The notes under the pieces were generated by a model. It saw only the letters and a program-made list of their open reading frames with translations. It was not told the origin of the DNA and searched no databases. DNA of 64,000 nt, taken from contig NC_013887.1 in assembly GCF_000025525.1 (NCBI RefSeq), positions 1,436,729 through 1,500,728 on the forward strand, read 5' to 3'. This stretch comes from Methanocaldococcus sp. FS406-22 (lineage in GTDB: Archaea > AGJL01 > Methanococci > Methanococcales > Methanocaldococcaceae). Below are positions 28,576 to 34,722 of this stretch, piece after piece (within the stretch, counting starts at the first letter, position 1; each line of letters begins with the position of its first letter). Position numbers and translations under genes: made by a program.

Positions 28576-30057
28576 ATGAAATACTACTGGGCTTCAACTG
28601 TTGAAAAATTTTTAAATGAAGATGTTTATAAGGAGATAGCCAAATATTCTAACAATATAAAACAACTAAATGCCTGGAAATCATCAATAAGTTATCTAAA
28701 AAAGATATTGGATGATGAAAGATTAAAAGAATTGTTTATAATTTTAGAATACAACATTCCACTAACCAATGAGAGAGTAGATGCCATTATCTTAGGAAAG
28801 TCTAACAATAAGACGTTAGCTCTACTTATAGAGATGAAAGGCTGGAGAAATTTTAAGCTTATCAATGACATATTTGTTGAGAGTGATTTGGGAAAGGCCA
28901 TTCATTCAGAGTATCAACTTCTAAATTATTTGGGAAAGATGAGATATTCTTTTTCAGAGGCTGAGTCGTTTGATTTTAATGGAATTGTAGTTATGTATAA
29001 TTCAAACTCAATAGAAGGATTTAACATTCCAGTATTTTTTAAAGAGGACGATGAAAAACTCAAAAGATATTTAAAACAACTCTTTACAGGAAAATTAGAT
29101 GAGAATGAGATAAACAGATTCTTAAATGCCACTTACTCACAAAATAAAAATTTATTTGAGGCTATAAAAAGATATTATAATGAAATATCCTCAAAAAGCC
29201 ACAAGGTTTTAGCTGAAGATGGATTTGGTCTATCTGAAAGCCAGATAAAGCTTTTATATGAAATTTTAGATGATTTAGAATCTAAAAGAAAAATTGTTTA
29301 TTTGGTTAATGGAAAACCTGGGAGTGGAAAGACATTGGTAGCTATTCATTTACTGCTTAACGCCTTAAAAAATAATTATAAAACTGTACTGTGCTACAGA
29401 AACAATAGGTTAATAAACTCATTAAGGGAGATATTTAATTCAATAAAACCCGGTTTATCATCAGTTATTAAATTTTATTCCACTGGAAGAGGGTTTGGAG
29501 TTGCTGAAGATAAATTTAAAGGATATTTTGACTTAGTTATATACGATGAAGCCCAGAGAATGAGCTTAAATAATATAAAGGCTGCAATTAAAAGGGGTAG
29601 AGTTGTGGTTTTCTTCTATGATGAGGGGCAAATACTAAATGCTGAAGAAGAAGGAACTACGGAAAACTTTATTAAGGTGTTAGAAGATAGCAATGTTGAA
29701 TATAAGCTTAGAACCTTAAATAGCATTCATAGAATTCCAGAAAGTTACGCAAATTGGGCAGAAGAATTCTTAAAAAATCCAAATACTGAGCCTAACTTCA
29801 AAGACTATGATTTTAGGGTTGTTGATAGCATTGAGGAACTTTTAGAACTACTGAAGGAGAAAAATAAAAAAGCTTTGATTGCAGCATTCACAGAATCTCC
29901 CGGAGACTTTAACAATCCATACTCAATAAAGAATTTGAGAATTGGGTATCCTCTCTACTCTGGCTTTGATTTGTATAAAAACTTTAATAAAAGGATATAT
30001 TGGCTTATGCATCCAAAAAATGATTATGTTCCATTCTGGATTTATGGTGAGTGCAAT
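28576..30057 (+). pseudogene. DUF2075-type superfamily I helicase, N-terminal part, truncated
   Basis: The first 494 codons encode a nuclease-like N-terminal domain (~1-200) and a DUF2075 helicase domain: Walker A NGKPGSGKTLVA (~250), Walker B-like VIYDEAQRMS, and LNSIHRIPESYANWAEEFL. Homology runs to WIYGECN, where the family normally continues into its last helicase motifs. Beyond 30058 the frame stays open for 74 more codons, but this reads through GC-rich non-coding sequence. The missing C-terminal motif reappears at 30364-30477. I therefore treat the gene as disrupted. AGGGGAGAG precedes the ATG. Confidence 0.78.
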
Positions 30058-30066
30058 AGGGGTCTG

Positions 30067-30265
30067 CCCAACATAGACAATTATAGACAATCATCTATGT
30101 TGAGCTTGGGTGTCATCAACCTCATCTCCCTCTGGGTTCATTGGGAGCATGTCGTCGGTCTCTTCCCCTGTCGAGGGGACCCCAACTCCTCCCATAGGTT
30201 TAAATTTAAAAACCTCTGCCCCCTTAGGTCTCCAGTATCACCCTCATCGGAGGCAGAATCCTACG
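30067..30265 (-). ncRNA. GC-rich structured ncRNA candidate inside broken helicase gene
   Basis: About 200 bases, far more GC-rich than the surroundings, fold locally on the minus strand: CTGCCTCC/GGGGGCAG, AGGTTT/AAACCT, TGGGAG/CTCCCA enclosing TCCCCT-CGAC-AGGGGA, and a distal stem AACATAGA/TCTATGTT. A consensus BRE/TATA (30288-30303) lies at the right distance. No RNase P or SRP signature is seen. It resembles in character the high-GC RNAs (Hgc) known in hyperthermophilic archaea, but I cannot assign it to one. Boundaries are approximate. Confidence 0.65.
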
Positions 30266-30287
30266 ATTTAAAATGTATATAAAGCAG

Positions 30288-30303
30288 TATATAAATATTT
30301 CGG
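30288..30303 (-). promoter_or_regulatory. BRE/TATA promoter for the GC-rich ncRNA
   Basis: The minus strand reads CCGAAATATTTATATA, nearly the same as the tRNA-cluster promoter CCGAAAAGTTTATATA at 547-562. The predicted start is near 30262-30266, at the edge of the GC-rich segment. A second TATA-like TTTATATAC lies closer, at 30275-30283. Confidence 0.7.
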
Positions 30304-30363
30304 AAATAAAAACACACAAATGGCTACATTTGTCTATGAATAATTGAACAGTTTTAAACGGCT

Positions 30364-30477
30364 ATGAAGTTGTTGGTAAATAGGTATAGAATATTTTTAA
30401 CAAGGGGGATTAAAGGGACTTATGTATTTTGTGAAGATGAAGAGACACGAAAATTCTTAAAGGATTTATTTAGGTGA
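30364..30477 (+). pseudogene. C-terminal remnant of the DUF2075 helicase
   Basis: A 37-codon frame reads MKLLVNRYRIFLTRGIKGTY and continues VFCEDEETRKFLKDLFR. This is the final helicase motif block (NRYRxLLTRGxKGxYxxCxDxETxxxL) of DUF2075 proteins. An in-frame stop lies just upstream, so it is detached from the N-terminal part at 28576-30057. It ends in the ribosome site of the next gene (TAGGTGAAAT). Confidence 0.8.
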
Positions 30478-31812: not shown

Positions 31813-34722
31813 ATGAAGGATATTTTAAAGAGAGTTTCTGATGTAGTTTGGGAATTACCTAAGGATTACAAAGATTGTATGAGAGTCCCTGGAAGGATAT
31901 ATTTAAATGAAATTTTATTAGATGAGTTAGAACCAGAGGTTTTAGAGCAAATAGCGAATGTTGCATGCTTACCTGGGATTTATAAGTATTCTATAGCCAT
32001 GCCAGATGTCCACTATGGTTACGGGTTCGCGATTGGCGGAGTAGCGGCTTTTGACCAAAGAGAGGGAGTTATAAGCCCTGGAGGAGTCGGTTTTGATATC
32101 AACTGCCTTACACCAAACTCAAAAATATTGACAGAGGATGGATACTTTATAAAATTAGAAAAACTAAAAGAAAAATTGGATTTACATGTTAAGATTTATA
32201 ATACAGAAGAAGGGAAAGAAAAGGATTCAAACATATTATTTGTCTCTGAAAGAGATGCAAAAGAAAAAATAATAAGGATAAAGACAGAATTTGGGAGAGT
32301 TTTAGAAGGAAGTAAAGACCATCCAGTTTTAACACCAAATGGTTATGTTCCAATGGGTATGTTAAAAGTAGGGGATGAAATAGTAGTTTATCCTTATGAA
32401 GGGGTTGAATATGAAGAGCCATCAGATGAGATAATATTGGACGAGAGTGATTTTGCAGAGTATGATAAACAGATTATTAAATACCTAAAAGATAAAGGAT
32501 TATTACCATTTAAAATGAACAACAAAAATATTGGGATTATCGCAAGGTTGTTAGGATTTGCCTATGGAGATGGAAGCATAATTAAAGAAAATGGAGATAG
32601 AGAGAGATTGTACGTTGCATTTTATGGAAGGAAAGAGACATTATTAAAAATTAAGGAAGATTTAGAGAAATTAGGAATAAAGGCTTCAAAAATATATTCA
32701 AGAAAGAGAGAGGTTGAAATAAAAAATGCCTATGGAGATGAATACATAAGTCTATGTGAAGACAACTTTATAAAAATAACTTCAAAGGCATTTGCATTGT
32801 TTATGCATAAATTAGGAATGCCAATTGGTAAGAAGACAGAGCAATCGTACAAAATCCCAGTATGGATAAAAAAAGCACCAAAATGGGTAAAGAGGAATTT
32901 CTTAGCTGGATTGTTTGGAGCTGATGGAAGCAAAGTTGTGTTTAAAAATTACACACCATTGCCAATAAACTTAACAATGTCAAAGAGTGAAGAGCTAAAA
33001 ACAAATATTTTAGAGTTTTTAAATGATATTAGGCTATTATTAGCCGAGTTCGGAATTGAGAGTATGATTTATGAGATAAAAGCCTTAGATGGTAGAGTTT
33101 CATATAGATTAGCAATTGTTGGAGAAGAGAGCATAAAGAACTTCTTAGGAAAAATAAACTACGAATATTCAGAGGAGAAAAAAGTTATTGGATTGTTAGC
33201 TTATGAATACTTAAAGAGAAAAGATGCTATAAAAGAGATAAGAAGGAAATGTATTGAAAAAGCAAAAGAGTTATATGAAAAAGGATTATCTATTTCAGAA
33301 ATTTTGGAAATAGACAAATTTAGAAATGAGTTTATAAACAGGAGGTTAATTGAAAGAGCAATATATGGAAAGCTAAATGAGGATGATGTAAGAGTTTCAA
33401 CAAAATTCCCAAAGTTTGAAGAGTTCATTAAAGAATACGAGGTTAGAGGAGGATTTGTAATAGATAAGATAGAGGAGATTGAAGAAATCTCCTATGATTC
33501 AAAATTGTATGATGTTGGAATAGTAAGTAAAGAACACAACTTTATAGCAAATAATATAGTTGTTCATAATTGCGGAGTTAGGCTTATAAGAACAAATTTA
33601 ACAAAAGATGAAGTAGAACCAAAAATAAAAGAGCTTGTAAAAACTTTATTCAAAAATGTTCCATCTGGTTTAGGAAGTAAAGGAATTTTAAAGTTCAGCA
33701 AAAGTGTTATGGATGATGTTTTAGAGGAAGGAGTTAGATGGGCTGTTAAAGAGGGCTATGGATGGAAGGAAGATTTGGAGTTTATTGAAGAACATGGCTG
33801 TTTAAAAGATGCAGATGCTTCCTATGTTTCAGATAAGGCAAAAGAGAGAGGAAGAGTTCAATTAGGAAGTTTAGGAAGTGGAAACCACTTCTTAGAAGTT
33901 CAGTATGTTGAAAAGGTATTTGATGAGGAAGCTGCTGAAGTATTTGGAATTGAAGAGAATCAAGTAGTTGTTATGGTTCACACAGGTTCAAGAGGTTTAG
34001 GGCATCAAATCTGCACTGACTATTTAAGAACTATGGAGAAAGCAGCTAAGAATTATGGAATAAAACTTCCAGATAGGCAGTTGGCATGTGCTCCATTTGA
34101 ATCGGAAGAGGGGCAGAGTTACTTTAAGGCAATGTGTTGTGGAGCAAACTATGCATGGGCAAATAGACAGATGATTACACACTGGGTTAGGGAGAGCTTT
34201 GAGGAAGTATTTAAAATACATGCTGAAGATTTAGAAATGGGAATAGTTTATGATGTAGCCCACAACATTGCTAAGAAAGAAGAACACATAATAGATGGAA
34301 GAAAGGTAAAAGTTATAGTGCATAGAAAAGGAGCTACAAGAGCATTTCCACCAAAACATGAGGCAATTCCAAAAGAATATTGGAGTGTTGGACAACCAGT
34401 TATTATTCCAGGAGATATGGGAACAGCTTCCTATTTAATGAAAGGGACGGAGATTGCTATGAGAGAAACGTTTGGTTCAACAGCTCATGGAGCTGGTAGA
34501 AAGCTAAGTAGAGCTAAAGCTTTAAAGCTATGGAAGGGTAAAGAGATACAAAAAAGATTGGCAGAGATGGGAATCATTGCAATGAGTGATTCAAAGGCAG
34601 TAATGGCAGAGGAAGCCCCAGAGGCATATAAGAGTGTTGATTTAGTTGCTGATACGTGCCATAAAGCTGGAATATCCCTAAAAGTAGCAAGAATGAGACC
34701 ATTAGGGGTTATTAAGGGATAA
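31813..34722 (+). CDS. rtcB: RtcB tRNA-splicing ligase precursor, interrupted by an intein
   Basis: RtcB joins 2',3'-cyclic phosphate and 5'-OH RNA ends with GTP and Mn2+, finishing tRNA intron splicing. The 969-residue precursor has an N-extein (residues 1-97), a 489-residue intein and a 383-residue C-extein, so mature RtcB is 480 residues. Ligase motifs [56 protein letters not shown] and [13 protein letters not shown] (guanylylated His) are intact. The intein splits the Mn-binding motif at DIN/C, so the enzyme should be inactive until splicing. GGTGATGCATC precedes the ATG. Confidence 0.97.
32104..33570 (+). mobile_element. Intein with DOD homing endonuclease in RtcB
   Basis: It begins at Cys98 of the precursor ([20 protein letters not shown]) and ends VVHN, followed by Cys+1 of the C-extein, the standard splicing residues. 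The block-B region ([10 protein letters not shown]) has a histidine. Two LAGLIDADG-like motifs, [10 protein letters not shown] and [10 protein letters not shown], about 120 residues apart, indicate a DOD endonuclease. The penultimate residue is His, as in canonical inteins. Because both acidic residues are kept, the endonuclease may be active. Confidence 0.95.

What the first reader, a model, noticed from the sequence alone, without database searches (positions are those of the whole stretch)
30058..30363. GC-rich RNA-like segment with its own promoter replaces the middle of a helicase gene
Seen: about 200 GC-rich, hairpin-forming bases begin exactly where DUF2075 homology stops (after WIYGECN). 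A minus-strand CCGAAATATTTATATA at 30288-30303 nearly equals the tRNA-cluster promoter. Known: in hyperthermophilic AT-rich archaea, GC-rich islands often mark structured ncRNAs. Inferred: an ncRNA gene inserted or was captured here, deleting part of the helicase. I cannot assign it to RNase P, SRP or another class.
Basis: partly seen in the sequence, partly recalled or inferred. Interest (0 to 1): 0.78.

Follow-up and report, generated by a model that had tools for sequence, protein, structure and literature searches.

The report
Guide-RNA-only miniature archaeal transposon
The GC-rich segment is one copy of a tiny jumping element that has lost its protein genes but keeps a promoter and the guide RNA normally used by the RNA-guided protein TnpB (an ancestor of CRISPR-Cas12); such guide-only copies outnumber the TnpB-carrying ones in these heat-loving methane makers.

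Summary
In detail: 30059-30362 (minus sense) is a GC-rich, structured insert with a TATA promoter inside a broken DUF2075/SLFN-type helicase gene. It is not a captured host ncRNA. It is a 304-bp dispersed repeat with exact ends, about 73-80% identical to most multicopy relatives in other Methanococcales-type genomes: an internally deleted IS607-family transposon. It keeps the left end, a BRE/TATA promoter, the TnpB omegaRNA (reRNA) and the right end, and has lost tnpA and tnpB. The RNA covaries (55 double-sided changes against 20 in shuffles) and has the published ISDra2 omegaRNA topology. A covariance model finds 78 stand-alone against 29 TnpB-linked copies in 36 genomes; several stand-alone layouts all keep promoter plus omegaRNA. 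The own genome carries an autonomous relative (tnpA, tnpB, omegaRNA) on its 12-kb second contig. Most likely these are guide-only parasites that borrow TnpA to move and TnpB to use their RNA. Caveat: this TnpB clade has the RuvC-III aspartate replaced by glutamine in every member checked, yet evolves under purifying selection, so the complex may bind rather than cut. No transcript data were available. The helicase deletion is probably a separate lesion.

The parts
30059..30362 (-). Whole miniature IS607-type element (304 bp in the alignment convention; the G at 30362 is probably host, the CC at 30361-30360 and 30060-30059 is the crossover dinucleotide at each end)
   Evidence: Exact shared ends in about 22 copies with unrelated flanks; L046 empty-site reading
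30304..30359 (-). Left end (LE): GTTTAAAACTGTTCAATTATTCATAGACAAATG..., includes the palindrome ACAAATG-TAGC-CATTTGT at 30333-30316
   Evidence: Conserved in MITE copies and in the TnpB elements L069/L070
30288..30303 (-). BRE/TATA promoter CCGAAATATTTATATA (a second TATA-like box TTTATATA at 30283-30276); predicted start of transcription about 30266 (inferred)
   Evidence: conserved as CCGAAATTTTTATATA in copies of other genomes
30059..30265 (-). omegaRNA (reRNA) scaffold, about 207 nt
   Evidence: Covariation; covariance model R1; homology to the tnpB 3' end + right end
30216..30256 (-). 5' domain: stem 30256-30249/30223-30216 with inner stem 30243-30240/30229-30226; corresponds to the zinc-finger-coding part of tnpB (CPVCGSKM..)
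30173..30191 (-). Stem 1 (30191-30188/30176-30173); its loop holds GGGGUC (30183-30178), one side of the pseudoknot
30108..30167 (-). Stem 2 (30167-30164/30111-30108, innermost A-A unpaired in this copy) enclosing stem 3 (30147-30143/30130-30126)
30066..30105 (-). Stem 4 = right-end hairpin, 14 bp in the consensus, carrying TATAGACA-type repeats
30059..30064 (-). GACCCC: guide-adjacent 3' end of the scaffold; pairs with GGGGUC 30183-30178 (pseudoknot)
   Evidence: topology as published for ISDra2 (PMC10097598)
30039..30058 (-). Predicted guide (TATTGCACTCACCATAAATC), host DNA of the helicase gene; matches the empty target next to the TAM-like GCC
   Evidence: Position by analogy with reRNA (PMC8612924); no other site in the genome within 2 mismatches of CC + the first 16 nt
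28576..30057 (+). 5' part of the interrupted DUF2075/SLFN-g3 helicase gene
   Evidence: PF09848 E=9.5e-36
30379..30477 (+). 3' remnant of the same gene (NRYRIFLTRGIKGTYVFCEDEETRKFLKDLFR), in another frame
   Evidence: PF09848 positions 335-354; alignment to an intact Methanosphaera homologue

Best explanation
Window 30059-30362 is a non-autonomous, internally deleted IS607-family element. What remains is the left end, a TATA promoter, the omegaRNA/reRNA scaffold of a TnpB, and the right end. Shown by sequence: dispersed repeat, exact ends, CC/GG crossover without duplication, covarying omegaRNA fold, autonomous tnpA-tnpB relative in the same genome. Inferred: the serine transposase (TnpA) of an autonomous element moves it in trans; the promoter transcribes the scaffold and runs past the right end into host DNA; TnpB made elsewhere loads this RNA; the 16-20 nt downstream of GACCCC act as guide against the same site lacking the element (TAM-like GCC + target). 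This favours retention or spread of the copy, by cleavage and copying back if TnpB is active, or by binding if it is not.
For: Multicopy repeat in own and related genomes, with 99-100% identical pairs in different flanks, so recently mobile. Ends GCC...GACCCC with unrelated flanks; removal of the element plus one CC restores an open alanine-dehydrogenase-like frame in L046, matching the IS607 GG crossover without duplication (PMC6188088, PMC4058570). The RNA part is homologous to the tnpB 3' coding end + right end. Autonomous relatives encode an IS607 transposase (NF033518, 244.7 bits) and TnpB (TIGR01766, PF07282; NF040570 above its cut-off for L069, 90.8 against a cut-off of 100 for L072). 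Covariation: 16 pairs and 55 cells changed on both sides against 10.6 and 20.1 in shuffles, at most 7 and 14 when slid. Topology equals that of the ISDra2 omegaRNA. Model R1: 78 stand-alone against 29 TnpB-linked loci. Three stand-alone layouts all keep LE + TATA + omegaRNA core + RE.
Against: No transcript or RNP data. The cognate TnpB clade has Gln in place of the third RuvC Asp, so cleavage is doubtful. G006 holds about nine MITE copies but only a decayed TnpB and no detected TnpA (draft, 89% complete). Some copies have lost the pseudoknot bases (L047, L074). Part of the covariation may have arisen while the RNA was still attached to tnpB.
Confidence: 0.75

Rival explanations
1. Plain MITE: only the DNA ends matter. 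The structured middle is a fossil of the tnpB 3' end, passively carried, and no functional guide RNA is made.
For: MITEs need only transposase-recognised ends; no expression data; some copies have a damaged pseudoknot; in G006 no intact TnpB is found.
Against: The 5' domain and stems covary among stand-alone copies, which form their own groups in the tree. The TATA/BRE box is kept in nearly all copies. Layouts with different deletions retain the same two parts. A pure-ends MITE would not need about 130-200 GC-rich bases.
Confidence: 0.2
2. One reading: a host ncRNA gene of unknown class was inserted or captured and has a host function.
For: Promoter resembles the tRNA promoter; GC-rich structured RNA.
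Against: No Rfam family; multicopy with transposon ends; homologous to tnpB/right ends; no match in 17 of 36 genomes.
Confidence: 0.02
3. Domesticated regulator: this copy's RNA acts with a nuclease-dead, TldR-like TnpB as a guided repressor of the locus it sits in or of a related sequence.
For: RuvC-III Asp replaced by Gln in the whole clade with dN/dS about 0.05-0.2; TldRs are a known outcome (PMC13418256).
Against: The guide is just the flank of this insertion; no second target in the genome within 2 mismatches; the target gene is already broken; TnpB is still in mobile IS607 elements, not in a fixed operon.
Confidence: 0.03

Closest known systems
TnpB omegaRNA/reRNA (ISDra2; PMC8612924, PMC10097598)
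   Same: Overlaps the 3' end of tnpB and the right end; ends at the element boundary so that flanking DNA is the guide; stem 1 with a pseudoknot to the guide-adjacent bases, stem 2 enclosing stem 3, stem 4 next to the guide.
   Different: Here the RNA gene stands alone behind its own promoter, without tnpB; extra 5' domain; the partner TnpB lacks the third RuvC Asp; IS607 rather than IS200/IS605 transposase.
IS607-family transposons (PMC6188088, PMC4058570)
   Same: CC/GG crossover, no target duplication, serine transposase in autonomous relatives (NF033518).
   Different: The window copy carries neither tnpA nor tnpB.
RAGATH-18 reRNA / IS607 TnpB (PMC11061315)
   Same: IS607 TnpB with a structured guide RNA at the 3' side, pseudoknots.
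   Different: There the reRNA does not overlap the coding sequence; here it does in autonomous copies. TAM AGGAG/GAGGG there, GCC-like here. No Rfam match.
PATEs of Haloquadratum (PMC3119063)
   Same: Short, no terminal inverted repeats, palindromes near the ends, no target duplication, related to TnpB elements.
   Different: PATEs are tied to IS605-type elements and were described before omegaRNAs were recognised; in the passages read no guide-RNA content or promoter is described.
TldR nuclease-dead TnpB (PMC13418256)
   Same: TnpB-like proteins with a changed RuvC site and a guide RNA.
   Different: Here the protein is still encoded in multicopy transposons.

Membership tests
[quoted passage not shown]
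   Homology to tnpB 3' ends and right ends; scaffold ends with GACCCC at the boundary
TnpB omegaRNA (reRNA) | Pseudoknot between guide-adjacent bases and the loop of stem 1; stems 2-4 | tested here: met
   Structure named and counted, 92.9% of cells paired, helix 4 (pseudoknot) 91.4%; compared with PMC10097598. The pseudoknot pairs themselves vary little, so their own covariation support is slight
TnpB omegaRNA (reRNA) | Expressed and bound by TnpB; flanking 16-20 nt used as guide | not testable with these tools
   No RNA or protein experiment available
TnpB omegaRNA (reRNA) | TAM adjacent to the left end | tested here: inconclusive
   G precedes the CC in 29 of 31 elements in AT-rich flanks; could be TAM or transposase preference
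IS607 family | Crossover at GG/CC, no target site duplication | tested here: met
   CC at both ends in the copies; L046 empty-site frame. No occupied/empty pair from two genomes was found
IS607 family | Encodes an IS607 serine transposase | tested here: not met
   Absent from the 304-bp element itself; present in autonomous relatives. Hence a derivative, not a full member
MITE/PATE (non-autonomous, palindromes near ends) | Multicopy, too short for a transposase, palindromes near the ends, no duplication | tested here: met
RAGATH-18 reRNA | Matches the family by sequence and structure | tested here: inconclusive
   No Rfam match up to E=0.1 for five loci; whether RAGATH-18 is among the models was not checked
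RNase P RNA, SRP RNA, tRNA, other Rfam classes | Covariance-model match | tested here: not met
   Only tRNAs found in the window; no credible match in 29950-30450
Active RNA-guided nuclease TnpB (partner protein) | RuvC triad D-E-D | tested here: not met
   Positions of D191 and E278 look kept; D361 is Gln in all members of this clade checked

The most novel reading that the evidence does not exclude
The partner TnpB is nuclease-dead but still serves the transposon. Its RNP, loaded with RNAs from a swarm of guide-only elements, binds empty sites next to the CC crossover dinucleotide and steers or excludes re-insertion by the serine transposase: an RNA-guided homing or site-marking system in place of cleavage.
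Probability: 0.1. Interest if true: 0.88.

Novelty: new variant of a known kind. Interest (0 to 1): 0.64.

Why it matters
Guide RNAs of TnpB are usually studied as by-products of the tnpB transcript. Here a miniature element carries only the guide RNA with its own promoter, is recently mobile, and outnumbers TnpB copies about 78 to 29 in one archaeal order. That makes it a natural two-component system (guide in trans) in which to test whether RNA-guided retention works in trans and whether parasites of the TnpB system exist. It also points to a conserved TnpB clade with an altered RuvC site inside live transposons, which bears on how nuclease-dead RNA-guided proteins arise.

Tried and rejected
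Host ncRNA (RNase P, SRP, other): no Rfam match. IS200/IS605 with a Y1 transposase as the mover: PF01797 is found in only 5 of 31 genomes and not in G024, which has the most copies; the autonomous relatives carry an IS607 serine transposase instead. A DNA-level empty site in another species for L046: only the same genome's split locus and short chance hits. An intact orthologue of the helicase in relatives: none in 31-36 genomes nor in genome contigs; only 19-27% identical plasmid homologues. Idea that the insertion itself deleted the helicase part: joining the flanks gives ...GAG TGC AAT AGG CTA TGA, an immediate stop, so the gene was damaged before or altered separately; timing cannot be told. 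Failed or mis-specified calls: 29, 37, 43, 48, 71. A single search for papers on rearranged RuvC sites gave nothing useful.

Full report
What is there. No Rfam family fits.

It is a mobile repeat. A search of the own genome and 30 relatives found many copies. Copies from two other genomes of the same genus (G004, G006), from G011 and from G024, of another family of the same order, align end to end with the window from 30362 to 30059 and stop there, while the flanks are unrelated. Within a genome some copies are 99-100% identical, so they moved recently. The window copy is 73-80% identical to most of them (63% to L065, which has an extra hairpin cassette).

It derives from a TnpB transposon. 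The weaker, partial matches in most genomes lie at the 3' ends of genes that encode the zinc finger CPVCGSKMKSQEGQ and continue into the right end of the element. These are tnpB genes (PF07282, TIGR01766, NF040570). Complete elements (L059, L063, L072, L076) carry upstream a MerR-helix-turn-helix plus resolvase protein; the one in L072 is called IS607 transposase by NCBIfam (NF033518, 244.7 bits). The window element keeps the left end, a promoter, the RNA part and the right end, and lacks both genes. It also ends as IS607 elements do: CC at both ends (GG on the other strand) and no duplication. In G004 (L046) removing the element and one CC restores an uninterrupted frame ...FDSTGLAIQDIAVAYKLYLEAKNQGLGMN.... 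IS607 is known to recombine at GG without duplication (PMC6188088, PMC4058570). The base before the CC is G in 29 of 31 elements, which may be a TAM or a transposase preference.

The RNA is an omegaRNA. In 16 stand-alone copies a structure of 45 pairs is formed in 92.9% of cells; 16 pairs and 55 cells show changes on both sides, against 10.6 and 20.1 in shuffles, and at most 7 pairs and 14 cells when the partners are slid. The arrangement is that of the ISDra2 omegaRNA as solved (PMC10097598): a stem 1 whose loop (GGGGUC) pairs with the bases next to the guide (GACCCC), a stem 2 enclosing stem 3, and a stem 4 beside the guide. In ISDra2 the guide is the roughly 16 nt of flanking DNA (PMC8612924). 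By analogy the guide here is TATTGCACTCACCATAAATC, the helicase gene's own sequence. An additional 5' stem corresponds to the part of tnpB that encodes the zinc finger.

Stand-alone copies are the majority. A covariance model searched over 36 genomes of the phylum-level group found 107 distinct loci: 29 within 400 bases of a TnpB zinc-finger match, 78 without. The count depends on the Pfam hits: TnpB genes too decayed to be seen count as stand-alone (one such in G006), and weak or decayed RNA hits are included. G024 has 30 stand-alone and 11 linked loci. A second layout in G024 (13 copies aligned: L142-L153 and L155) lacks the 5' domain and has a TATA box about 30-40 nt before stem 1; a third in the own genome (L071, L160, L161) has a TATA box followed by a short stretch that looks like inverted tnpB sequence (the inversion was read by eye). 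In a tree of the shared core the first layout forms one group (support 93/80) spanning both families, and layouts 2 and 3 another (99/97); a single origin is not excluded. That copies with different deletions keep the promoter and the scaffold is the best argument that the RNA is used.

Partner in the same genome. The second contig (12.2 kb) of the own genome carries a complete IS607 element: TnpA at C2:9736-10377, TnpB, and the RNA at C2:11446-11703. Its stem 3 is of the same type as the window's (CTCCCCAATGAACCCAGAGGGGAG).

A caveat about cutting. In every member of this TnpB clade examined (12 loci from several genomes) the residue aligned with catalytic D361 of ISDra2 is Gln (NRQ/DRQ in place of DRD), while the other TnpB clades in the same genomes keep Asp. 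The genes are nevertheless under purifying selection (dN/dS 0.05-0.19). Either the active site is rearranged or the protein binds without cutting, as in TldR proteins (PMC13418256). So retention by cleavage, the usual model, is uncertain here.

The helicase. The gene is a DUF2075/SLFN-g3 type helicase with no orthologue in the relatives. Compared with an intact Methanosphaera homologue and the Pfam profile, about 55-65 codons are missing between GECN (30057) and NRYRIFLTRG (30379). Simple excision would not restore the frame, so the deletion is probably a separate lesion of a decaying gene; its timing is unknown.

Most likely working (inferred): TnpA in trans moves the element; its own promoter makes a scaffold RNA that runs into flanking DNA; TnpB in trans takes it up and acts at the same site where the element is missing, helping the copy to persist. 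From general knowledge (not tested), these archaea carry several chromosome copies, which would give such a drive something to act on; plasmid gene drive by TnpB has been shown (PMC11870625).

Novelty. In the held literature no description of guide-RNA-only IS607 MITEs was found, but subscription papers are missing from it; stand-alone omegaRNAs for IscB are known to me from memory only. PATEs (PMC3119063) are the closest described elements.

Noticed in passing
L059, L061, L067, L069, L070, L072, L016, L077, L091, L092, L105, L106 (TnpB): TnpB clade with RuvC-III Asp replaced by Gln in all members, yet under purifying selection; other TnpB clades in the same genomes keep Asp.
   Followed up: partly
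L054-L058, L063-L065, L075, L142-L153: A 47-50 nt REP-like double hairpin (GGAGCGAAGCGACGGGAACTTAAAAACCGTTAGGTTTTTATG) sits at the same place, beside the pseudoknot bases, in both tnpB genes (in frame) and stand-alone RNAs, in two families of archaea.
   Followed up: no
L067, L070, L076, L016 near the tnpB 3' end: Another hairpin pair (GAAGCGAAGCTTC...GGAAAACCGAAGGTTTTCC) inserted in frame in tnpB.
   Followed up: no
L154, L156: A further palindromic element of about 150-200 bp is inserted inside the REP-like hairpin of two guide-only copies.
   Followed up: no
own genome contig 2 (12.2 kb), 9.7-11.8 kb: Complete IS607 element with TnpA, TnpB and omegaRNA on the small second contig, probably a plasmid.
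   Followed up: partly
window 31813-34722: A 969-aa RtcB-like RNA ligase gene that appears to contain an intein (recognised from the translation only).
   Followed up: no
G006:C149:14566-15774: Decayed TnpB with many stops in a genome with about nine guide-only copies and no detected TnpA.
   Followed up: partly
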